In this document: one piece after another, positions 45,996 through 56,033 of the stretch
How positions within the stretch are numbered: position 1 is the first letter of the stretch
Layout: each line of letters starts with the position of its first letter
The notes under the pieces: generated by a model
What the model was told of the DNA's origin: nothing
Databases searched by the model: none
Seen by the model: only the letters and a program-made list of their open reading frames with translations
Source: Halorhabdus tiamatea SARL4B
Lineage (GTDB): Archaea; Halobacteriota; Halobacteria; Halobacteriales; Haloarculaceae
NCBI RefSeq assembly: GCF_000470655.1
Contig: NC_021921.1
Location: 620,001-684,000 of the forward strand
Reading direction: 5' to 3'
DNA length: 64,000 bases
Made by a program: the position numbers and the translations under genes

Positions 45996-46457
45996 TCAAA
46001 CTCCCTCGCCGGTGTCGTCGGGAACGGCCGTGAACTCAAGCGTTCGGAAGTGATCAGGATCGAACGTGAACACGTGCTCGATATCTCGGTCGGCAGCCAG
46101 CACACCGCTCATGTGGTCCGTGAGTGAGATCTCGTGATCGTCGTAGCGCGCAAACGCCTCGCATGTCCGATCGAAGTCCGCCCGGTCCGGCTGGATGACA
46201 GTCGTCGGTGACTCACGAACTCGCTCGAGCGCGGCCGTCGCAGCGTCGTGATCCCGATGGCTGAGGATGAGTGTCGCCAGTTCGTCGAGAACGTAGGTCG
46301 AAGTATACAGCGGACGATACGCAACCTCCCCGGTGCCGATCGCTTCGAACACCGCCGTGGCGCGGTCGTGGCGCTGTGCCGTCCCCACGAATCGAGCGTA
46401 GAACGCACCAGTGTCGATGAATAGCGGCGTTGCGCCGGGATCAACAGTCCGCGACAC
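45996..46457 (-). CDS. PIN-domain ribonuclease toxin (VapC-like)
   Basis: The 153-residue PIN-domain protein carries the usual acidic metal-binding set: Asp15 (PLFIDTGAFYARF), Glu59 (YVLDELATLIL), Asp114 (ISLTDHMSGVLA) and Asp133 (FTFDPDHF). It starts three bases after the stop of an HTH-protein gene, the standard antitoxin-toxin order. VapC-type toxins cleave tRNAs or rRNA; the target is not predictable. It has a short N-terminal extension before the first strand. Confidence 0.88.
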   Translation of the reverse strand: MSRTVDPGATPLFIDTGAFYARFVGTAQRHDRATAVFEAIGTGEVAYRPLYTSTYVLDELATLILSHRDHDAATAALERVRESPTTVIQPDRADFDRTCEAFARYDDHEISLTDHMSGVLAADRDIEHVFTFDPDHFRTLEFTAVPDDTGEGV

Positions 46458-46460
46458 GTC

Positions 46461-46805
46461 TCAGCCCTCACTGTAGAGAACGTCGTCGATCTCGGTCTCG
46501 TCGACCGGGTCGTCCGGAGATAGCAATGGCTCGCCGCTGAAGAGTGGGTCGTCCGTTGGGAAATCGTGTGCGGACGCGTTGTCGTCCGGGACCCACCACA
46601 CACGGCTCCGCCCGCCAACCTTTTTGCTCGTGAGGTGGCCACGCTCCGCCAGTTCGTGGAGCCGGTCGAGTACTGTCCGGCGCGAGCAGTTGAGATCGTC
46701 CGCGATCTCCGGTGCGGTGAGCGGCTCGCTATCGTCAGCACGATCGCGGAAGACGTCGAGTACGTCCTCGGCGACGACCTCCGGATTCGGTCCTGGTTTC
46801 CCCAT
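46461..46805 (-). CDS. HTH-domain antitoxin/regulator paired with the PIN toxin
   Basis: The 114-residue protein begins MGKPGPNPEVVAEDVLDVFR and has a winged-helix region LTAPEIADDLNCSRRTVLDR with SKKVGGRSRVWWVP as the wing, followed by an acidic, probably disordered C-terminus that would bind the toxin. It is located directly upstream of the PIN gene, three bases apart. A 14-bp dyad seven bases before its start codon is a likely autoregulatory operator. This haloarchaeal HTH type replaces the usual AbrB- or RHH-type VapB. Confidence 0.8.
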   Translation of the reverse strand: MGKPGPNPEVVAEDVLDVFRDRADDSEPLTAPEIADDLNCSRRTVLDRLHELAERGHLTSKKVGGRSRVWWVPDDNASAHDFPTDDPLFSGEPLLSPDDPVDETEIDDVLYSEG

Positions 46806-46812
46806 ATCTAAC

Positions 46813-46826
46813 CCTACGCACGTAGG
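46813..46826. promoter_or_regulatory. 14-bp dyad upstream of the HTH-PIN pair, candidate operator
   Basis: CCTACGCACGTAGG consists of CCTACG and its complement CGTAGG around CA. It ends seven bases before the ATG of the HTH gene, where a bound antitoxin or toxin-antitoxin complex would block initiation. It is the only clear dyad in the intergenic stretch. Confidence 0.5.
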
Positions 46827-47032
46827 AATCAAAAATCTTTCTCGGCCGGATTGATGCCATGAATTACCGGCAAAGCGGTTTACAGCTGAGCACTATCAAT
46901 ATACACGTGGGTACAGTTAGAATGCAATACTTTCGATAAACACGACTCTCACACGACCGGCGCTCCTTTGTGCGTGCCGACCGACAACTATCGACGAACG
47001 ATGACTGCACACGATCACGCGGGGGCAGACCG

Positions 47033-47704
47033 ATGACGCAAGACCTCCAGGCGCTCCTGCTCGGCGGGACGGCGTTCCCGTTCCACGATATCGAAGAACT
47101 CGGCCCGCACATCGAGGCCGCGCTTTCGGCCGAAGGCATCGACGCCGAGATCACGACCGATCGCGAAGAACTCGCGGTGCTGCCCGACAGCGAATACGAC
47201 GTCTGCATCGACTACACGACCGACAGCGAGATGACCGACGCCCAGCTGTCGGGGCTACTCGAGTTCGTCGAGCGCGGCGGTGGCTATGCGGGCGTCCACG
47301 GCGCGGCGGCGCTCGAGACTACAGTTCCCTCGGACCCCGACGATGTCGTCGGGGAGCGTGAGGAGCCAAACCCCGAACTCGAGGAACTCATCGGCGGGCG
47401 ATTTATTCGCCATCCCGATCCAGCCGCCTTCGACGTCCGGATCGTCGATTCCCACCACCCGATCACGATCAACCGCGCGGACTTCCAGGCCTACGATGAA
47501 CCCTACGAGGTCGTCACCGACGACGTCCACGTCCTCGCGCGGATGGACCACCCAGACCTGGGGGACATGCCGGTCGCCTGGGTGAAACCCTACGGCGATG
47601 GTCGGTCCTTCTATACCGCGCTCGGACACTTTCGGTCGGCTTTTGAAGGAGAGGCGCGGGCGCTGCTCGGGGCCGGCGTGCGGTGGGCTGGCGGTCGGGC
47701 GTGA
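47033..47704 (+). CDS. ThuA-like domain protein
   Basis: The 223-residue protein has the ThuA/class I glutamine-amidotransferase-like fold: LQALLLGGTAFPFHDIEELG, ELAVLPDSEYDVCIDYT, FVERGGGYAGVHGAAALETT, DSHHPITINRADFQAYDEPY, and the C-terminal VAWVKPYGDGRSFYTALGHF. ThuA-like proteins are linked to sugar metabolism, but no enzyme activity is assigned here. The last 375 bases (from codon 101 on) are partly repeated at 55742-56026, where the copy is truncated and fused to another gene. This is the intact member. Confidence 0.85.
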   Translation: MTQDLQALLLGGTAFPFHDIEELGPHIEAALSAEGIDAEITTDREELAVLPDSEYDVCIDYTTDSEMTDAQLSGLLEFVERGGGYAGVHGAAALETTVPSDPDDVVGEREEPNPELEELIGGRFIRHPDPAAFDVRIVDSHHPITINRADFQAYDEPYEVVTDDVHVLARMDHPDLGDMPVAWVKPYGDGRSFYTALGHFRSAFEGEARALLGAGVRWAGGRA

Positions 47705-47784: not shown

Positions 47785-48348
47785 TTACGGAAGACAGTGC
47801 AAGATACAGCAGCTTTGTGCAGCACTGTTAGTCATCAGTACTTGAGTGTCATTCAATAGTCTATTTGGTGGCAATTCTCCATCACATTGTCGTTCGTGTT
47901 TCACCATCCAGTTTGAATCGATACCGTCTGTACCTAATTCCTCACCTTGGTAAACCGTGATACTCAATTCTGTATCCTCATCACACGGTGATTCTTCGGC
48001 CTTGAATGTCAGTAAATGGGGAAATCCTTCGCAGGAAATTCGGTATGGGCCATAATCTCTATTTTCTTCGACAGTCCCTATCTGTTTTCTACATACTTCC
48101 GTTCCTGCACGCGAAAACCCTACAATATGAACAGCGTGGAACGTATTCCATTGATCAGACTCACCAGTAGCGCTCATATATATAGTTATTTCTAGTTGAT
48201 AGCTGTCATCAGTATGCTCTTTCAACTCTGTGGCCCGGAATCCCAACTTACGCTTCCGTGGATAATCTCCTGGACATCCGCTGAGTAAACCCATTCCGCT
48301 AACAGCGAATGCTCCCAATATATTCCGGCGGGATATTTGCTTAGTCAT
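47785..48348 (-). CDS. Tat lipoprotein, partner of truncated protease module 3
   Basis: The 187-residue protein has a Tat motif (ISRRNILGAF) and lipobox LLSGC at Cys25. Its exported domain resembles the partners of the two other protease modules: AVHIVGFSRAGTEVCRKQIG and LLTFKAEESPCDEDTELSIT correspond to the same beta-rich domain in the 48.7-kb and 50.4-kb partners. It starts inside the stop region of the preceding fragment (8-base overlap ATGACTAA). Codon usage is visibly AT-richer than the chromosome around it. Function unknown; extracellular inhibitor/immunity partner is my hypothesis. Confidence 0.7.
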   Translation of the reverse strand: MTKQISRRNILGAFAVSGMGLLSGCPGDYPRKRKLGFRATELKEHTDDSYQLEITIYMSATGESDQWNTFHAVHIVGFSRAGTEVCRKQIGTVEENRDYGPYRISCEGFPHLLTFKAEESPCDEDTELSITVYQGEELGTDGIDSNWMVKHERQCDGELPPNRLLNDTQVLMTNSAAQSCCILHCLP

Positions 48349-48646
48349 CGATTGATGGAACGTCTTTGAGATCTACCGTAGTCAACTCTTCAATACTATA
48401 TGCTAACCGTCTTCCCATCATCGCTGCACTATACCCATCTGTCATTATACTCCATTCTGGCTCGTCAAACCCAGATATGTATTCCGGCGTCTCGTCTTCT
48501 CCTCCACCGACGAGTTTGACACCAGCGATCGACCCATTGACACAGTCACTCCCGCTGTAACACTCGGCAATGTGCCCGTCGCCTTTGTCGTGGAGCCAGC
48601 CGATACTTAGAGCGTGCCCCAACTCGTGCATTACCTCGGATTGCAT
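48341..48646 (-). pseudogene. C-terminal fragment of the metallopeptidase domain (module 3)
   Basis: The 101-residue frame starts just before the zinc site (MQSEVMHELGHALSIGWLHD) and keeps HExxH at residues 7-11, the GGGEDETPE segment and the Met-turn WSIMTDGY, but lacks everything N-terminal to the active helix. Bases 48482-48631 are closely similar to 49257-49406 in the next module. It lies only 21 bases after the partner gene of module 2 and in the same frame, so the 5' part was probably lost by deletion. Most likely a remnant, although still open. Confidence 0.75.
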
Positions 48647-48667
48647 GACGTGGAAATGCTGATTTTC

Positions 48668-49123
48668 TCACTCACATCCCATGTCTACTATTGTCCAATT
48701 CGATTTATTATCGTTTTCACCTTGATACTGAAGGATTTCAATAACAGTATCATCTTCACATATATTTTCACCCACATTGAAAGTGATACTGTCTGGCCAG
48801 CTTTCACACCGTAATATCGAAGTGAACTCTTGACTTTCAGTCAACGTTCCGAGAGACTGCGAACACAATTTTGTCTGGTCCTCTGTTCGTCCAACGAGAG
48901 AAACCCCTGTGAATTGAGCCCAACTCTCCGCGCCTTGAAGACTGACCGATATTTCTACCTCGAATCTGTGCCCTCCATTTGAATATGAGTGATTGATACG
49001 ATTGAACCCGAGATATCTATCACATGTCCCGGTATCATCAACCGATATACAACCGGACATATTCAAAAGGCCCAGTGTCGTCCCTGTCACGATAAATCTC
49101 CGTCTCGATATCCCGTCAGTCAT
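48668..49123 (-). CDS. Tat lipoprotein, partner of truncated protease module 2
   Basis: The 151-residue protein has a Tat signal (GISRRRFIVTGTTLG) with lipobox MSGC. The mature part is beta-rich with four further Cys and shares the block SLVGRTEDQTKLCSQSLGTL / ITFNVGENICEDDTVIEILQ with the other partners. Start and protease stop overlap as ATGACTGA (8 bases). Low GC relative to the genome. Anchored outside the membrane, it is placed to meet a secreted protease. Confidence 0.75.
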   Translation of the reverse strand: MTDGISRRRFIVTGTTLGLLNMSGCISVDDTGTCDRYLGFNRINHSYSNGGHRFEVEISVSLQGAESWAQFTGVSLVGRTEDQTKLCSQSLGTLTESQEFTSILRCESWPDSITFNVGENICEDDTVIEILQYQGENDNKSNWTIVDMGCE

Positions 49124-50276
49124 CTGTTGATGGGATATCATCTGTATCGATTGAAATTAATTCTTCCAAGCTATAGACCAGTCGATTGTTGCTGTACTCA
49201 TTTGCTCGATATCCTCGTGTCATTATACTCCACCGAATATCGCCAATTCCAATCTCTTCCGGCGTCTCGTCTTCTCCTCCACCGACGAGTTTGACGCCAG
49301 CGATCGACCCTTTGACACAGTCACTCCCGCTGTAACACTCGGCGATATGTCCGTCACCTTTGTCGTCGAGCCAACCGATAGATAGCGCATGTCCAAGTTC
49401 ATGCATGAGTAATTTTTTCGCCTCGCTGAATGATGAAGTCTCGTTATCGAAAACGACCGTCCCGTATGGAACACGGCCCGTCGTTTCCAGCGCGGCCACC
49501 TGGCCAGGCGAGCCAGTATGTCCTTCTAACCCAATTACGTTGCCAGGGATGAATTTATCGTGAGGGAGATATTCCGGCTCGTCAGACCCATATTCGTTAG
49601 CGTAGAGCAGGTGTAGCTTGCTATCATCGTCGTGATATTCGTTCTCGATTACCGAAAGTTCCTTCACGTTCAAACTATCCGGTGTGACGTAGATCGGAAC
49701 TGGAACCGTTATTGTACTCCCTGGGAATAGCAGTTTCCGTTCATGGCCTTTGACGAGGTCTTGAAGGTCACTCTTTTCGATCGAGTCGCTATTGCTCTCA
49801 TCGAACGTCACATTGATTCCATACAGGGCTAGATTCTTTTTTGTCGAAGAGAGTACCGTTTCGCCGCCACGGCGAATTTGGGACGGGTTGTGGCCTGTTA
49901 GCCAATCGACTTCGATTTCGAGCGACGTTTTCTCGTCCAATTGTTCCGGATTAGGGTCAGTTGGATCCGAATCCCAGTGTAGCTCTCCGAGATGAACGTT
50001 CGAATGCCGCTTTACGGAAGAGCCGGGAGAATTGTCGAGATACGCTCCGGGGTCCTCGGGGTGAACTACGTGCACACCAACCTGCTCGTCGACGCGTTCG
50101 TCAGCACCGCTAACGCCATTGCCTGACTGCAAATTCTCTCGGTAGAGGATCACGTTGTCCGAATACCCGACACCGTGAACACCGATCCAGCCGTCCCAGT
50201 AGCCGTCGCCGTCCGTATCTAGGTTCAGCGGATCGATCTGTTTCGACACCTTCTCATCTACAGATACGGTTGTCAT
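49116..50276 (-). CDS. orphan C-terminal module of the secreted metallopeptidase (module 2)
   Basis: The 386-residue protein corresponds to the last third of the giant protein at 50.9-55.5 kb. Residues 21-103 (TDGDGYWDGW to GELHWDS) are almost identical to residues 1175-1257 of the giant protein; DNA identity is perfect over 168 bases. Beyond that the peptidase domains diverge, keeping HELGH at 292-296, Cys314/Cys320 and a Met-turn WSIMTRGY at 349-356. There is no signal peptide, so without recombination it would stay in the cell. The ATG follows a relic of the parent frame (see below), so the start is uncertain. Confidence 0.75.
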   Translation of the reverse strand: MTTVSVDEKVSKQIDPLNLDTDGDGYWDGWIGVHGVGYSDNVILYRENLQSGNGVSGADERVDEQVGVHVVHPEDPGAYLDNSPGSSVKRHSNVHLGELHWDSDPTDPNPEQLDEKTSLEIEVDWLTGHNPSQIRRGGETVLSSTKKNLALYGINVTFDESNSDSIEKSDLQDLVKGHERKLLFPGSTITVPVPIYVTPDSLNVKELSVIENEYHDDDSKLHLLYANEYGSDEPEYLPHDKFIPGNVIGLEGHTGSPGQVAALETTGRVPYGTVVFDNETSSFSEAKKLLMHELGHALSIGWLDDKGDGHIAECYSGSDCVKGSIAGVKLVGGGEDETPEEIGIGDIRWSIMTRGYRANEYSNNRLVYSLEELISIDTDDIPSTDD

Positions 50277-50335
50277 CTGAAGTTCGGGAACCGGGTAATA
50301 TGCCGGAGTTCCTGACCGTCGGTCAGGCAGTCGTC
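50276..50335 (-). pseudogene. out-of-frame relic of the parent Asp-rich repeat upstream of module 2
   Basis: On the minus strand the 20 codons before the module-2 start read DDCLTDGQELRHITRFPNFR and stop. DDxxLTDGQELxxIT matches DDDGLTDGQELKGIT at residues 1126-1140 of the giant protein. The relic is shifted by one frame from the module-2 ATG, so the cassette was once longer and has been shortened. A TATATATG element directly precedes it and might provide a promoter. Confidence 0.6.
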
Positions 50336-50415
50336 ATATATAGATTCAGGCCAGTCCCTTCCGAGAGGTCTCCTCTTTTGATGCCCATGTATGGTTCTTA
50401 AATATGAGACGGAAA

Positions 50416-50880
50416 TCAGCACTCTTTGTGAATTTGAACAAATGGTTCGTAGCTTCCGTTTGCCCGTTGAAGGCCTTTTATCCAGTATTCCGCATCGGGA
50501 TTCTCTTCTTCGAGGGTTCCAATCTCGAGACGAATACGCTCAGGAATATTGTTAAGTTGGATAGTTCTTGTTTCATTCCAATTTCCAGAGAACGTCCCCA
50601 GATGAGTCCGTCGAAAAACGGTTCCGTTTATGTCTTCGTATTCGATTACAACGTTATGGAACGTTGCTACGGAGTGGCCAGAGCTAACAACCTCGATCTC
50701 TAGTTCGACACCTCCATCCTGGAGAGCGGTTTCTTCATACACCCAAGCCTCCAGCTCCCACGATGCTTGGCTGAGTCCTATCGGACACATAGAGACGGAA
50801 GATAGTAACGTCAATCCCCCTATTAACAGGATGATGATCACCACTAGCACGAGGAGGATCTTCTTTACCATGTTACTCAT
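50416..50880 (-). CDS. membrane-anchored partner of the full-length protease (module 1)
   Basis: The 154-residue protein starts MSNMVKKILLVLVVIIILLI, a single N-terminal signal-anchor, and continues with an extracytoplasmic beta-rich domain: NVVIEYEDINGTVFRRTHLG and NNIPERIRLEIGTLEEENPD align with the blocks of the two Tat-lipoprotein partners. It lacks a Tat motif, unlike them. The start overlaps the protease stop by 8 bases (ATGAGTAA). Together the three partners form one divergent family of unknown fold and function. Confidence 0.7.
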   Translation of the reverse strand: MSNMVKKILLVLVVIIILLIGGLTLLSSVSMCPIGLSQASWELEAWVYEETALQDGGVELEIEVVSSGHSVATFHNVVIEYEDINGTVFRRTHLGTFSGNWNETRTIQLNNIPERIRLEIGTLEEENPDAEYWIKGLQRANGSYEPFVQIHKEC

Positions 50881-53800
50881 TCTGGCTATCGATATTCTCG
50901 AATTCGATTGTAAATAGCTCTTCAATGCTGAAAGCAATATAATCTCCGTTCATCGGTCGATTGGTGACTGGCCGATTCCAGCCACTGCTCATCACGCTCC
51001 ACTCATACTGGTTTGGCCCAGAAAAGCCGACATCTTCTTTCGTCTGATCATCATCGTTCCCACTGTAGACTTCGTCAGGTACGACGCCAGTTCCATAGCG
51101 TGAGCTGTCGTCGTTTCTACCGGCACCGATCAGGTGGCCGATTTCGTGAACGATCGTCTTTTGATACGCAATGGGCTTTGGGTCGTTTTGATGGTCCTTC
51201 GTGAACACGAGCGTGCCGAATCCAAACCCGTGAACGTGGCCCAGTACCCAGTCCGATCCGTCCGAGGAAGCAACGCCGTCGACACCGTCCCAGCTTGGCA
51301 GGACGTTGTAATGATTGTCAGCACCTTTTGTCGTAATGAACATGTACGCACGCGATTCGTTATCGTGGTGCTCTTGCTCGATCCATTTTGCTTCTGGGTA
51401 GGTCGTTGGTGGAGTAAACTCGTCTTCGGTCTCTACGCAGACTTCGGGGCCGTGTTTTTGATAGCATTTTGTCTTTTTCTCGGTCAAATCACTATCATTG
51501 AGGGGGTCCCCGTCCAAATGCAAATTTGCGTTTATGCCGTATAGTGCATAGTTCTGTTCCACGCCACTATGTGCTTGGAGGGCTCTGGAATCAGCGTTGG
51601 CGTATCGATCCACCTCAACATCGAGTGATGGATCCGGTTTCACAGAGTCGTCATTCGGGTCTGCGGTCTGACTCGGATCGAAGCTATCCCAGTGTAGCTC
51701 TCCGAGATGAACGTTCGAATGCCGCTTTACGGAAGAGCCGGGAGAATTGTCGAGATACGCTCCGGGGTCCTCGGGGTGAACTACGTGCACACCAACCTGC
51801 TCGTCGACGCGTTCGTCAGCACCGCTAACGCCATTGCCTGACTGCAAATTCTCCCGGTAGAGGATGACGTTATCCGAATAGTCGACATCGTAGACGCCGA
51901 TCCAGCCGTCCCAGTAGCCGTCGCCGTCTGTGTCTGGATTCAGTGGAACAGTCGGTTCTTCTAGTATGTTCGCCTCTCTAACGTTGAAATATGTGAACGA
52001 TGCTATACCACCGGTAGTCCCTTGGGTGGCTTTCGTGATCCCTTTCAGTTCTTGTCCATCGGTCAACCCATCGTCGTCAAAGTCGGGATCCCATGGGTCC
52101 GTTCCCTCCTCCAATTCACGAGTGTTTGACAGCCAGGTGTCCGTCCGCTTGGTTCCATCCAGAGCAGTGAACGTGATCCGATTGAACAGTTCGCGACTAC
52201 GCGAAGCGTAGTTCCAGTCAAGCGAGTCGTCAGTGACGAAATCAAAATCACTCGTCGCATCGTTCAACCCGCTTGGCCCGACCGTAATTTCTTCTGTCGC
52301 TAATTGTTCTGGAATGCCGAGAGCGTCTGCACCGAATCGGAATCGAAAAACCTCTCCATCTGCTTCGATCAGTTCGATCATTTCGGCTTGCTCTGCAGTA
52401 ATCCCGTACGTCACGGGCTCGCGCGGATCCGTATGCGTGTATTCCTTCTCCTCGGTATCATTCAGTCCGTCGCCGTCCGTATCTTTCAGCATGGGGTTGG
52501 ACGTGACGGTGATATTGGCGTCCGGATTCTCATCGACACTGCCAGCCCACCGGTAGGGCTGGCCGCTCTCGTTGATCACCGAGATGTTCCAGCCGTCGGC
52601 CTTCGAGTTGTTCTCCAGAGAGACTTCCTCGTGATCTTCGAGGCCATCACCGTCCGAATCGGCGCGCGTCGGATTGGATCGCAGTTCGAAGTACGAGACG
52701 ATGTACTCGTGCTCGAGGTCGTTGACGACGAAGTCGATCGGGTACTCTCGGTATTCCTTGGCCTCTTCGCCGTCCGTGAGCTCGTCGCCATCAGTGTGCT
52801 TGTCGGTTGCGTTGGTCGGAAGCCGGCGGAGGTCCGAGCCAGTGTGACCAATCGGCAGTCCGTTTTCTTCGAGGACGTCCGGCAGTCCGTCGCCGTCGGT
52901 GTCTTTCGGTTCGACCTCTTCGGCGACACGCGAGAAGACGTTCGGCAAGTCCGAGGCGTCCTCGACGTAATTGTACGTCCCATTGGTGATCGATGCGATA
53001 TCCGAGAGTTTGTTTCCATCCGCTCCCCCGAACCCGATCGTGTGGATCGTGATATTCCGGTCGGCGGCTGTCCGTGCCTGAGCCCGGCCGCCCGAGCCCT
53101 GGCCGTCAGTCAATAGGATCGCAACCTTTGCGCGAGAGTTGTTGCTCGCACTCGCGAAGTGCTGGTTTGCCCGCGCGACACCGCTGCCGATGTCCGTCCC
53201 GCCACTCGCGTCCAGACTCTCGATCGTGACGTTGACCGCGCCGAAGTCCGTCGTCAACTCCTGAGCGACGTGGGCAGTGTGATCGAAGTCCACCACGCCC
53301 GCCCGGTCGCCCGGAATGAGCGCGCCGACGAACTCTTTGGCTGCTTGCTTCCGGAATTCCTGAGGATCGTTTCCGCCCATCGAGCCCGAGGAGTCGATGA
53401 TGAACTGGACGTCCACGGACTGGATCGAATCGTCCCCGCTCGATCCGTCTGACCCGTTCGACGGCACCTCGGCGGTGACATCATCTGCCCAGTTCGAAAT
53501 CGAGAAGACGGCGAACGTCGAGAAGTGTTCGGTCTGGGCTGTCACCGTGTTGTTCTCGGCGTCGATCGTCGAGTTGATCGGGACGTAGAGTTGCTTCTCG
53601 GGGTCGTAGGTGACGACTGCCAGATCTGACTCGTTGCTCGCAGCGGGAAGAGAATCGTCGTATGAGATGGTGACGTTCGCCGACTCGAACTCGCGCGTGG
53701 ATTCGATCTCGACGATCTCCGAGACGCTTATGTTCGCAACGCGATCGCCTTCGGCGAAGCGTTCAGTATCCTCGCCAACAGTCACGCCACCAGCTACGTT

Positions 53801-55453
53801 CCCCTGACCAGTCAACTCGATGTCGACGCCCAGACTCTCGTTGCCTGTCGTCGTCGTGTAGGTCTCGTTGCCATCCTCTACGCCGTCATCGTCGGTATCG
53901 GGATCGAGCGGGTCCGTGTTGAACGGGTCGGTCGGTTCGACGCCATCGTCGAGGCCGTCGTCGTCAGTGTCGGCCTGCCACGGATCCGTCCCGTTAGCGA
54001 GTTCCTGGGGATCGGTCAGCCCGTCACCGTCGATGTCGGCATACTGTGGCGAAGTCTCCGCTTCGTACTCCTCTGCGTTGGTTAACCCGTCTCCGTCGAG
54101 GTCTTCCGCACCATCGGATGTACCGTCATCGTCTGTGTCGGCGTCGAGTGGGTCCGTCCCGATCACGAACTCCTCGAAGCCATCAGGTAGATCGTCACCG
54201 TCTGTATCAGCTTCGAGTGGATCCGTCCCGAGTTCCCGTTCTCGGATCGTCGACAACCCATCACCGTCGAAGTCCTCGTGGCCGTCGATCGTGCCGTTGT
54301 CGGCCTCGTTCACCTCGGTCGACGGTGCGTCACTGTCAGGATCCAGCGGATCAGTGCCCGTCACATTCTCCTCGTAGGTATCGGGCAGGCCATCACCGTC
54401 CAGGCGAAGCACCACCGTGCTCGTCTGGCTCTGCCCGGATGAGACGCCACCGTTGCCGTTGTTGCCCTTCTTTTTGCCCTTCTGCTTGGATTTCTGCTTG
54501 CCGTTGTTCGACTGTTGGTTGTCAGTACTCTCGACGACCGCAATTTCGATCGTATTCACACGCTCGGTGAGATTGATCGTTTTCACGAACGTGCCGTTGG
54601 CGTAGCCACGGCGAAGCGGAAGGTCGACTGTCCGATCATCGTTGATCGTCGCAGTGACGTTCACCGCGTCCAATCCGGTGGGATCCGAAACGTGCCCCAC
54701 AAGCGTATAGCCAGCTCGTTCGCTCCCGTTACGGATCGGATCCGTCCGCCGTGTCAACGACACCTCCGGGCCGACCTCGCCATCGATCATTCGCAAGGCA
54801 GTGTGAGCCTGGTTGACCGCCGAGCCGTACGTTCGGACGGCCCGTGCCGTTGTACGAATCGACTGCGCTCCCGATTGCTCGCCAGCGCGATCGCGGATCC
54901 GCTCGGCGCGGGCGAGTTGCCACCGAGCATTGTCGATGTGCGCCTCAGCACTATGTTTCATTCCCGAGCCGAGGTCCGCCTCAGTCGCCGTGAATGCAGA
55001 TTCAGCATCACGGATGACTTGTCTGGAAGACTGGTTATCCGCCCGCGTCACCAACTCGACGATCTGGTCGAGTCGCTTGCTCTGATTCGTCCCGGCGAAG
55101 TCAGTCAGCGCGCGGAGTACTTCCGCATCGCGAATGAACGCGTGCTGGTCGTCGACGCGTATCGGATCCTGGTAATACGAAAAGGAATCGTTCAGTCGCG
55201 AGCGAGCCCGTTCCTTAGCCGACTCGAGTTGGTTCGACGAGGCCGAGAAGTTCTCGATTCGCTCCATGGCCTGGGCTTTCAGTATCACCGGCGGCCCGTC
55301 CATGGATACTTCAGAAACCGGATCAGCCGCCGCTGTATTCCCCGCGGTTTCGGAAACCGTCTCGGCAGACACCGTTCCCGCCGGCAACATCGAGACAATC
55401 ATAAGAACCGATGCGATCACCGCGAACAATCTCCGCCGCCCACTTGCGGACAT
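50873..55453 (-). CDS. giant secreted surface protein: Asp-rich calcium-type repeats, vWA domain, C-terminal metallopeptidase (module 1)
   Basis: The 1526-residue protein has a Sec signal peptide (LFAVIASVLMIVSMLPAGTV, cleavage near AETVSET at about 30), a helical region to about 225, a Lys/Gln/Asn/Gly-rich spacer (316-340), then thrombospondin type-3-like Asp-rich repeats (about 350-530, 850-1010 and 1115-1180). A vWA domain (about 678-845) has an intact MIDAS (DSSGS 687-691, Thr and Asp downstream). The C-terminal peptidase has HEIGH at 1436-1440 and a Met-turn SVMSSGW (Met1488), as in metzincins; the third zinc ligand is not obvious. A TATA box centred 27 bases before the ATG predicts a leaderless mRNA. 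Overlaps its partner gene by 8 bases. Confidence 0.88.
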   Translation of the reverse strand: MSASGRRRLFAVIASVLMIVSMLPAGTVSAETVSETAGNTAAADPVSEVSMDGPPVILKAQAMERIENFSASSNQLESAKERARSRLNDSFSYYQDPIRVDDQHAFIRDAEVLRALTDFAGTNQSKRLDQIVELVTRADNQSSRQVIRDAESAFTATEADLGSGMKHSAEAHIDNARWQLARAERIRDRAGEQSGAQSIRTTARAVRTYGSAVNQAHTALRMIDGEVGPEVSLTRRTDPIRNGSERAGYTLVGHVSDPTGLDAVNVTATINDDRTVDLPLRRGYANGTFVKTINLTERVNTIEIAVVESTDNQQSNNGKQKSKQKGKKKGNNGNGGVSSGQSQTSTVVLRLDGDGLPDTYEENVTGTDPLDPDSDAPSTEVNEADNGTIDGHEDFDGDGLSTIRERELGTDPLEADTDGDDLPDGFEEFVIGTDPLDADTDDDGTSDGAEDLDGDGLTNAEEYEAETSPQYADIDGDGLTDPQELANGTDPWQADTDDDGLDDGVEPTDPFNTDPLDPDTDDDGVEDGNETYTTTTGNESLGVDIELTGQGNVAGGVTVGEDTERFAEGDRVANISVSEIVEIESTREFESANVTISYDDSLPAASNESDLAVVTYDPEKQLYVPINSTIDAENNTVTAQTEHFSTFAVFSISNWADDVTAEVPSNGSDGSSGDDSIQSVDVQFIIDSSGSMGGNDPQEFRKQAAKEFVGALIPGDRAGVVDFDHTAHVAQELTTDFGAVNVTIESLDASGGTDIGSGVARANQHFASASNNSRAKVAILLTDGQGSGGRAQARTAADRNITIHTIGFGGADGNKLSDIASITNGTYNYVEDASDLPNVFSRVAEEVEPKDTDGDGLPDVLEENGLPIGHTGSDLRRLPTNATDKHTDGDELTDGEEAKEYREYPIDFVVNDLEHEYIVSYFELRSNPTRADSDGDGLEDHEEVSLENNSKADGWNISVINESGQPYRWAGSVDENPDANITVTSNPMLKDTDGDGLNDTEEKEYTHTDPREPVTYGITAEQAEMIELIEADGEVFRFRFGADALGIPEQLATEEITVGPSGLNDATSDFDFVTDDSLDWNYASRSRELFNRITFTALDGTKRTDTWLSNTRELEEGTDPWDPDFDDDGLTDGQELKGITKATQGTTGGIASFTYFNVREANILEEPTVPLNPDTDGDGYWDGWIGVYDVDYSDNVILYRENLQSGNGVSGADERVDEQVGVHVVHPEDPGAYLDNSPGSSVKRHSNVHLGELHWDSFDPSQTADPNDDSVKPDPSLDVEVDRYANADSRALQAHSGVEQNYALYGINANLHLDGDPLNDSDLTEKKTKCYQKHGPEVCVETEDEFTPPTTYPEAKWIEQEHHDNESRAYMFITTKGADNHYNVLPSWDGVDGVASSDGSDWVLGHVHGFGFGTLVFTKDHQNDPKPIAYQKTIVHEIGHLIGAGRNDDSSRYGTGVVPDEVYSGNDDDQTKEDVGFSGPNQYEWSVMSSGWNRPVTNRPMNGDYIAFSIEELFTIEFENIDSQNE
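51683..51931 (-). repeat. recombination-handle repeat in the giant protease gene (second copy at 49968-50216)
   Basis: This 249-base segment codes for residues 1175-1257. It matches 49968-50216 with about eleven differences, all in the 5' third of the coding strand; bases 51686-51853 and 49971-50138 are identical over 168 positions. Downstream, in the peptidase-coding part, the two genes are only distantly similar. Near-identity upstream of diverged ends is the signature of recombination between a parent gene and an orphan C-terminal cassette. Confidence 0.88.
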
Positions 55454-55484: not shown

Positions 55485-55630
55485 CGTTTCGGTAGTAAAC
55501 TACACCGATATAACAGGAGTGAATTTCAATTGAAATTGAGTAGATTGGTCGGTATTCAACGACACCCTCCGATCAAACCGCCTTCGCCGGGGACCAACCG
55601 TTTTTGCCCGTCCCGGTCGTCGCTCTCACT

Positions 55631-56023
55631 ATGCACAACGTGGACGCCGCAGGGCTCGGGATCGGCGACGATCACCCGCCCCGGATCATGGGCGTGCTCA
55701 ACGTGAGTCGTGAGTCGCCGTACGATCCCAGCGTCTTCGCCGACCCCGACAACATCGTCGGGGAGCGCAAGGAGCCAAGCCCCGAACTCGAGGAACTCAT
55801 CGGCGGGCGATTTATCCAGCATCCCGAGCCGGAGGTCTTCAACGTCCGCGTCCTCGCGCGGATGGACCACCCAGACCTGGGGGACATGCCGGTCGCCTGG
55901 GTGAAACCCTACGGCGATGGTCGGTCCTTCTATACCGCGCTCGGACACTTTCGGTCGGCTTTTGAAGGAGAGGCGCGGGCGCTGCTCGGGGCTGGTGTGC
56001 GGTGGGCTGGCGGTCGGGCGTGA
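55631..56023 (+). pseudogene. chimeric frame: 5' end of dihydropteroate synthase gene fused to ThuA-like 3' end
   Basis: The 130-residue frame starts MHNVDAAGLGIGDDHPPRIM with GVLNVSRESPYDPSVFADP, which I recognise as the N-terminus of haloarchaeal dihydropteroate synthase (FolP). After residue 39 it switches to the ThuA-like protein (IVGERKEPSPELEELIGGRF), lacks 30 codons present in the intact ThuA gene, and then matches its last 177 bases with two differences by eye. The junction lies in the shared bases GACCCCGAC. Neither parent fold is complete, so a functional product is unlikely although the frame is open. Confidence 0.8.
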
Positions 56024-56033
56024 ATCAATCAGT

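What the first reader, a model, noticed from the sequence alone, without database searches (positions are those of the whole stretch)
47785..55453. Cassette array of secreted metallopeptidase plus exported partner, arranged like a polymorphic toxin locus
Seen: a 1526-residue secreted protein (Asp-rich calcium-type repeats, vWA, C-terminal HExxH/Met-turn peptidase) with a small exported partner gene, followed by two progressively shorter copies of the peptidase end, each with its own diverged exported partner. Known: in polymorphic toxin loci (CDI, Rhs and others) a full-length parent with a C-terminal toxin and an immunity gene is followed by orphan C-terminal/immunity cassettes that lack secretion signals and can recombine into the parent; such systems have been predicted in archaea. 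Inference: the peptidase is the swappable effector and the beta-rich partner an inhibitor or immunity protein on the outside of the producer. An alternative is a simple decaying tandem duplication of a secreted protease and its chaperone.
Basis: partly seen in the sequence, partly recalled or inferred. Interest (0 to 1): 0.85.

Follow-up and report, generated by a model that had tools for sequence, protein, structure and literature searches.

The report
Swappable secreted protease with exported immunity
In the salt-loving archaeon Halorhabdus and its relatives, a large surface protein carries an interchangeable protein-cutting end, each version inherited with its own membrane-anchored partner, so it looks like a toxin system whose antidote sits outside the cell rather than inside.

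Summary
On the minus strand a 1526-aa secreted head protein (TSP3 repeats, VWA, HExxH peptidase end) is followed by an anchored partner and two shorter peptidase-end/lipoprotein cassettes. The same scaffold in other Halorhabdus ends in unrelated, partly nuclease-like domains. In two species at one chromosomal site, the head's end and immunity gene of one lie as a displaced orphan behind a different head in the other. Two Halosimplex species show the same head/orphan exchange for peptidase ends. Partners track the peptidase domain (Mantel r 0.62-0.66) but not the pretoxin region (0.07) or scaffold (-0.12). Partners behind dead peptidase fragments stay intact under purifying selection. Partner-only arrays exist. 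Partners of peptidase ends are membrane-anchored (54/55); genes behind other ends are cytosolic (11/12). The peptidase is metzincin-like at best; the partner is a confidently predicted beta-sandwich. Toxicity, binding and delivery are untested. Archaeal toxin systems, zincin toxins and one lipoprotein immunity family are known. The new part is a peptidase warhead paired with surface immunity on a scaffold that also carries cytosol-acting warheads.

The parts
50873..55453 (-). Head (parent) protein, 1526 aa: signal sequence, family-specific N-terminal region, TSP3 Ca-type repeats, VWA, pretoxin region, C-terminal HExxH peptidase
   Evidence: 88% and 74% identical paralogues in the same genome
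52931..53413 (-). VWA domain (residues 681-841)
   Evidence: Pfam PF00092 E 9e-22
51686..51957 (-). Pretoxin homology tract in the head (DGYWDGWIGV..HSNVHLGELHW), about 95% identical over 262 nt to cassette 2, flanks about 50%
50876..51730 (-). Peptidase domain of the head; HEIGH at 51134-51148, then GxxDD, EVYSG, WSVM, SIEEL
   Evidence: alignments A1/A4; motif table
50416..50880 (-). Partner 1 (predicted immunity), N-terminal membrane anchor plus beta-rich domain; ATG at 50880 overlaps head stop by 8 nt
49116..50276 (-). Orphan cassette 2: pretoxin region plus complete peptidase domain (HELGH at 49389-49403), no signal peptide
49971..50242 (-). Cassette 2 copy of the pretoxin homology tract
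48668..49141 (-). Partner 2, lipoprotein (lipobox MSGC); AlphaFold2 model beta-sandwich, mean pLDDT 84
48341..48646 (-). Orphan cassette 3: 101-aa peptidase tail starting just before HELGH (48614-48628); DD altered to HD
49257..49380 (-). Second homology tract (HExxH region) in cassette 2; 93.5% identical to 48482-48605 in cassette 3
48482..48605 (-). Second homology tract (HExxH region) in cassette 3
47785..48348 (-). Partner 3, lipoprotein (lipobox LSGC)

Best explanation
This is a haloarchaeal polymorphic toxin locus. The head is exported by its signal peptide and displayed or released; its TSP3/VWA part is the constant scaffold and its C-terminal zinc-peptidase domain the variable warhead. 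The anchored partner protects the producer and its kin, most simply by binding and blocking the peptidase at the outer face of the membrane. Downstream cassettes are displaced former ends with their partners: the peptidase pieces lack signals and decay, the partners are kept. New ends enter the head by recombination in the pretoxin tract and perhaps at HExxH. SHOWN by computation: scaffold/warhead decoupling, warhead-partner linkage, orphan cassettes, allelic exchange between species, partner anchoring specific to peptidase ends, selection on partners behind dead peptidase fragments. INFERRED: peptidase activity, toxicity, inhibition by the partner, action at the target cell surface, recombination at HExxH. 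UNKNOWN: how the head reaches its target and what it cleaves.
For: Same scaffold, different ends: Halorhabdus heads with N-terminal E < 1e-100 (L045: 3e-98) end in peptidase (window, L041, L042, L045) or in other domains (L049 barnase/EndoU/colicin-like PBECR3 at E 7.5e-4, below its cut-off; L122; L053). Head identity to L041 is 100% at residues 751-1050 and 34-37% at 1276-1425. Site exchange 1: L049 (H. amylolytica) and L122 (another Halorhabdus genome) share one site; the scaffold is mosaic (65-91% aa over residues 1-525, 24-61% over 526-975, 81-100% over 976-1275), the last ends differ, and the L049 immunity gene lies 84% identical behind the L122 head with a tail remnant. Our own genome keeps an orphan cytosolic immunity gene 68% identical to the L122 one near its L041 peptidase head. 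Site exchange 2 (peptidase ends, two Halosimplex genomes): heads' ends 27% alike, each head's end 67-75% alike to the other's orphan, partners 85% and 59%, head partners without similarity; flanks 90-92%. Partner directly behind nearly every peptidase end. Co-phylogeny r 0.65, permutation maximum 0.22; in subsets tail-partner 0.62, N-lobe-partner 0.66, pretoxin-partner 0.07, scaffold-partner -0.12. Anchored partners 54/55 vs 1/12. All 35 peptidase ORFs of 230 aa or more keep [H/E]ExxH, D13 and the Met; 19 of 25 short ones do not. Partner omega 0.17, 0.00, 0.18 vs fragments 0.53, 0.54 (pooled Fisher p 3e-4). Partner-only array L174.
Against: No activity, toxicity or binding evidence. One clade has EExxH, which may be inactive or bind metal differently. 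The peptidase fold was not confirmed: AlphaFold2 mean pLDDT 53, no PDB fold match, metzincins only at E 0.08 or worse. Close tails can have distant partners (cassettes 2/3: tail 74%, partners 31%; L047: 69%/31%). Raw pairwise identity gives only r 0.20. Co-inheritance alone would also give linkage. Toxin fragment c has omega 0.19, like the partners. Non-peptidase ends are nuclease-like by weak matches and E-x-K motifs only.
Confidence: 0.82

Rival explanations
1. Secreted digestive or adhesive metalloprotease with its own exported chaperone or inhibitor; downstream copies are a simple decaying tandem duplication.
For: Progressively shorter copies; serralysins have small periplasmic inhibitors encoded next to them (PMC4070987); head and partner always adjacent.
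Against: Copies are identical only in short tracts, not throughout; the same scaffold carries unrelated ends with cytosolic partners; head/orphan exchange between species; partner-only arrays; partners kept behind dead peptidase fragments.
Confidence: 0.09
2. Antigenic or self-recognition variation: the head is a surface adhesin whose end varies to escape phages or to mark kin, the anchored partner being its surface receptor; no killing.
For: VWA/TSP3 scaffold; variable end; anchored partner; Makarova et al. keep such a reading open for the Thermococcales VARTIG loci (PMC8416519).
Against: Catalytic motif kept in all 35 ORFs of 230 aa or more; alternatives on the same scaffold resemble intracellular toxins with cytosolic immunity.
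Confidence: 0.06
3. The peptidase is a processing or release enzyme of the head, not the effector.
For: Such peptidases exist in polymorphic toxins, e.g. the PVC-metallopeptidase (PMC3482391).
Against: It sits at the extreme C-terminus, nothing follows it, and other warheads replace it rather than follow it.
Confidence: 0.03

Closest known systems
Polymorphic toxin systems of archaea (predicted; Makarova et al. 2019 mBio e00715-19, not held here, cited through PMC8416519) and of bacteria (Zhang et al. 2012, PMC3482391)
   Same: Constant secreted N-terminus, variable C-terminal effector, adjacent immunity gene, orphan cassettes without signals, polyimmunity arrays
   Different: Most common archaeal warheads are said to be DNases/RNases; here a peptidase with an exported partner; TSP3/VWA scaffold without RHS, FilH or PVC parts in the Pfam scan
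Tox-MPTase1-5, HopH1-like and ALF-like zincin toxins (PMC3482391)
   Same: HExxH zincin-type domain at the end of a polymorphic toxin
   Different: Table there lists no immunity family for Tox-MPTase1-5; mostly RHS-linked; our motif is HExxHx4GxxDD plus Met-turn; homology not tested
Tox-JAB-1 / Imm65 (PMC3482391, Bacteroidetes)
   Same: Peptidase-type toxin domain with a lipoprotein immunity protein
   Different: JAB fold, unrelated; Imm65 is stated there to be the only lipoprotein immunity protein in that collection
Serralysin AprA and its inhibitor AprI (PMC4070987)
   Same: Secreted metzincin with a small exported inhibitor encoded nearby
   Different: No end swapping or orphan cassettes described; homology of partner not shown
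BsuPI intracellular proteinase inhibitor, PDB 3isy
   Same: Best single Foldseek match of the partner model (prob 0.99)
   Different: E 1.7e-3, TM 0.27-0.33, many other beta-sandwiches follow; not evidence of homology

Membership tests
Polymorphic toxin system | Constant N-terminus with unrelated C-terminal ends in relatives | tested here: met
Polymorphic toxin system | Cognate gene immediately downstream that co-varies with the end and not the scaffold | tested here: met
Polymorphic toxin system | Orphan end/immunity cassettes without secretion signal, interchangeable with heads | tested here: met
Polymorphic toxin system | Polyimmunity or solitary immunity genes | tested here: met
Polymorphic toxin system | C-terminal domain toxic, neutralised by the partner | not testable with these tools
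   needs expression in a haloarchaeal lab strain
CDI (CdiA/CdiI) | Two-partner secretion domain, FHA repeats, CdiB | tested here: not met
   Pfam scan of the head shows only TSP3 and VWA above cut-off; no CdiB gene was sought
Rhs toxins | RHS repeats | tested here: not met
Metzincin metallopeptidase | HExxHxxGxxH/D plus Met-turn | tested here: inconclusive
   HExxHx4GxxDD and W-x-x-M conserved; spacing two residues longer; profile matches to metzincins only E 0.08-1
Tox-MPTase1-5 | Profile match to those families | not tested
   no profiles under those names on hand; Pfam and NCBIfam gave no toxin family
BsuPI or serralysin-inhibitor family | Significant sequence or fold match of the partner | tested here: inconclusive
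   no Pfam match; Foldseek 3isy E 1.7e-3

The most novel reading that the evidence does not exclude
One haloarchaeal surface scaffold carries warheads for two compartments: cytosol-acting enzymes with cytosolic immunity, and a surface-acting metzincin-like peptidase with lipoprotein immunity. Partner location thus reports where each warhead acts, and ends may even be exchanged inside the peptidase domain at HExxH.
Probability: 0.55. Interest if true: 0.75.

Novelty: new variant of a known kind. Interest (0 to 1): 0.62.

Why it matters
A 2021 paper states that archaeal polymorphic toxin systems are predicted but not experimentally characterised (PMC8416519). This family offers sharply defined head, cassette and partner pairs, natural swaps between sister species, and a partner whose location is a built-in prediction of where the toxin acts. 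It would add a peptidase class with externally anchored immunity to the archaeal armoury and gives a compact test: peptidase with and without partner, outside the cell.

Tried and rejected
Makarova 2019 is not held, so prior mention of this exact family could not be excluded. The first profile search for loci failed for lack of a conserved stretch and was redone with A3 (13 loci). AlphaFold2 of the peptidase was poor and its fold search meaningless. Raw identity was a poor measure of partner distance (r 0.20); tree distances were used instead. The first motif table indexed wrongly and was replaced. NCBIfam and PADLOC gave nothing useful. Simple tandem duplication was rejected for the reasons given under the rivals. 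CDI and Rhs membership was rejected because defining domains are absent from the Pfam scan.

Full report
WHAT IS THERE. On the minus strand of the window lie a 1526-aa head protein (50873-55453), a small anchored partner (50416-50880), a 386-aa peptidase cassette with lipoprotein partner (49116-50276, 48668-49141) and a 101-aa peptidase tail with lipoprotein partner (48341-48646, 47785-48348). The head has TSP3 repeats and VWA and ends in HEIGH..GxxDD..EVYSG..WSVM..SIEEL. The window is G000:C2:620001-684000.

IT IS A FAMILY WITHIN ONE GENOME. The genome has four further loci of the family: L041 and L042 with full heads, L044 as an array of cassettes broken by insertion, and L043 as a broken N-terminal piece. 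Head and L041 head are 76-100% identical to residue 1200, 100% over 751-1050, then fall to 34-37% in the peptidase. So the scaffold is shared and the end is not.

SAME SCAFFOLD, OTHER WARHEADS. In the family (146 genomes searched, 76 with some match, many only to VWA or repeats), heads with strong N-terminal homology end in other domains. L049 (H. amylolytica) shows a sub-threshold PBECR3 nuclease match (E 7.5e-4). L122 has a different end. L050, L052, L124, L127 and L129 show E-x-K motifs of the restriction-nuclease kind (my reading, no profile support). L049 and L122 occupy one site with 85-89% flanking DNA identity. Their heads are mosaic: 65-91% aa identity over residues 1-525, 24-61% over 526-975, 81-100% over 976-1275, then 25-42%. 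The immunity gene of L049 sits 84% identical as an orphan with a 58-aa tail remnant behind the L122 head. This is the displaced-cassette pattern of polymorphic toxins. Our own genome keeps, beyond the L041 peptidase head and a transposase, an orphan cytosolic gene 68% identical to the L122 immunity gene.

PEPTIDASE ENDS SWAP TOO. Two Halosimplex genomes (L060 and L056) share a site with 90-92% flanks. Their heads' ends are 27% identical. The L060 head's end matches the L056 orphan (67%) with partner 85%; the L056 head's end matches the L060 first orphan (75%) with partner 59%; the two head partners have no detectable similarity. The L056 head is shortened and may be decayed. L056 is placed in Halosimplex carlsbadense by its contig length; L060 shares its genus label.

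PARTNERS. Nearly every peptidase end is followed within a few nucleotides, mostly overlapping, by a homologous exported partner. Tree distances of peptidase tail and partner correlate (38 pairs, r 0.65, best of 5000 permutations 0.22). Among 25 complete domains the partner follows the tail (0.62) and the N-lobe (0.66) but not the preceding pretoxin region (0.07, p 0.17); among 11 heads it does not follow the scaffold (-0.12) while tail-partner is 0.45 (p 0.004). Partners of peptidase ends carry a lipobox or strong N-terminal hydrophobic segment in 54 of 55 cases; the gene after other ends does in 1 of 12, that one being an internal pattern match. These are simple rules, not a trained predictor, and related loci are not independent.

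ORPHANS. Of 35 peptidase ORFs of 230 aa or more, all keep [H/E]ExxH, the Asp and the Met; of 25 shorter ones, 19 have lost or altered a motif residue or lack it by truncation (my count from the table), and about 14 of those still have a partner of 145 aa or more directly behind. Comparing the arrays of L042 and L054 from two genomes of the genus, the partners behind the fragments show omega 0.17, 0.00 and 0.18, two fragments 0.53 and 0.54, the third 0.19; for the first two pairs the pooled contrast has Fisher p 3e-4 (genes overlap slightly). Partner-only arrays exist, e.g. about seven partners with only remnants of a peptidase in L174, and single partners at loci without a peptidase match. This is what immunity genes do and what a private chaperone would not.

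RECOMBINATION TRACTS. Head and cassette 2 share 262 nt at 94.7% in the pretoxin region with about 50% on both sides; cassettes 2 and 3 share 124 nt at 93.5% around HExxH with about 50% outside. The first looks like the homology used to join a new end to the scaffold. The second suggests exchange inside the peptidase domain, which could also separate a tail from its partner and explain why cassettes 2 and 3 have similar tails (74%) but distant partners (31%).

STRUCTURE. The partner model is good (mean pLDDT 84, eight strands). Its first PDB match is a bacterial proteinase inhibitor (3isy) but with low TM-score among many beta-sandwiches, so this is a lead only. The peptidase model is poor. Profile searches put metzincins first at E about 0.1, and Pfam gives sub-threshold reprolysin and matrixin matches. 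The spacing to the third ligand candidate is two residues longer than the metzincin consensus (from general knowledge). A clade (L047, L057, L058, L105) has EExxH.

HOW IT MOST LIKELY WORKS. The head is exported and presents its end to neighbours. The peptidase acts outside or at the surface of a neighbouring cell; kin survive because their own lipoprotein blocks it there. Haloarchaea have one membrane, so a lipoprotein faces the medium (general knowledge). What is cleaved, and how scaffolds deliver cytosol-acting ends, is unknown.

WHAT IS KNOWN. Polymorphic toxins in archaea are predicted, mostly with nucleases (PMC8416519, citing Makarova et al. 2019, which I could not read). Zhang et al. 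2012 (PMC3482391) list zincin toxin families Tox-MPTase1-5 without an immunity family, and name Imm65, partner of Tox-JAB-1, as the only lipoprotein immunity protein in their collection. Toxin-immunity pairs have been shown to work in haloarchaea for a type six system (PMC11566945). So the kind is known and the peptidase/lipoprotein variant on a TSP3/VWA scaffold appears new, with the reservation about the unread paper.

DISTRIBUTION. 20 of 391 genomes of the class have the peptidase domain, 17 of them in this family, 3 in other families. A Halomicrobium mukohataei plasmid carries one, annotated hypothetical. One hit lies in a MAG labelled Salinivenus, probably a misbinned haloarchaeal contig (not tested).

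Noticed in passing
window 55604-56023 (+) and 46970-47704 (+): The ORF upstream of the head is a chimera of a dihydropteroate synthase N-terminal piece and a ThuA C-terminal piece; 55557-55749 is 92% identical to the folP flank of the L044 array and 55842-56026 98% to the intact thuA on the other side. The array probably arrived by recombination between loci.
   Followed up: partly
L047, L057, L058, L105 peptidase domains: A clade with EExxH in place of HExxH, otherwise fully conserved and with normal partners; may use another metal or be inactive.
   Followed up: partly
L174:6516-10833: Halosimplex aquaticum array of about seven partner genes with only remnants of a peptidase: a polyimmunity locus.
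   Followed up: yes
L048:1-14000 and L052:1-13001: Very large heads (2669 and 2050 aa) with repeated helical pretoxin-like regions and several downstream nuclease-like/immunity-like cassettes; they share the VWA region with our head.
   Followed up: no
L043 (own genome C2:1254000-1268000): A head of this family broken into pieces by transposases and a beta-propeller lipoprotein gene.
   Followed up: no
window 45996-46832 (-): PIN-domain protein with an upstream HTH gene next to the array, a likely ordinary toxin-antitoxin pair.
   Followed up: no
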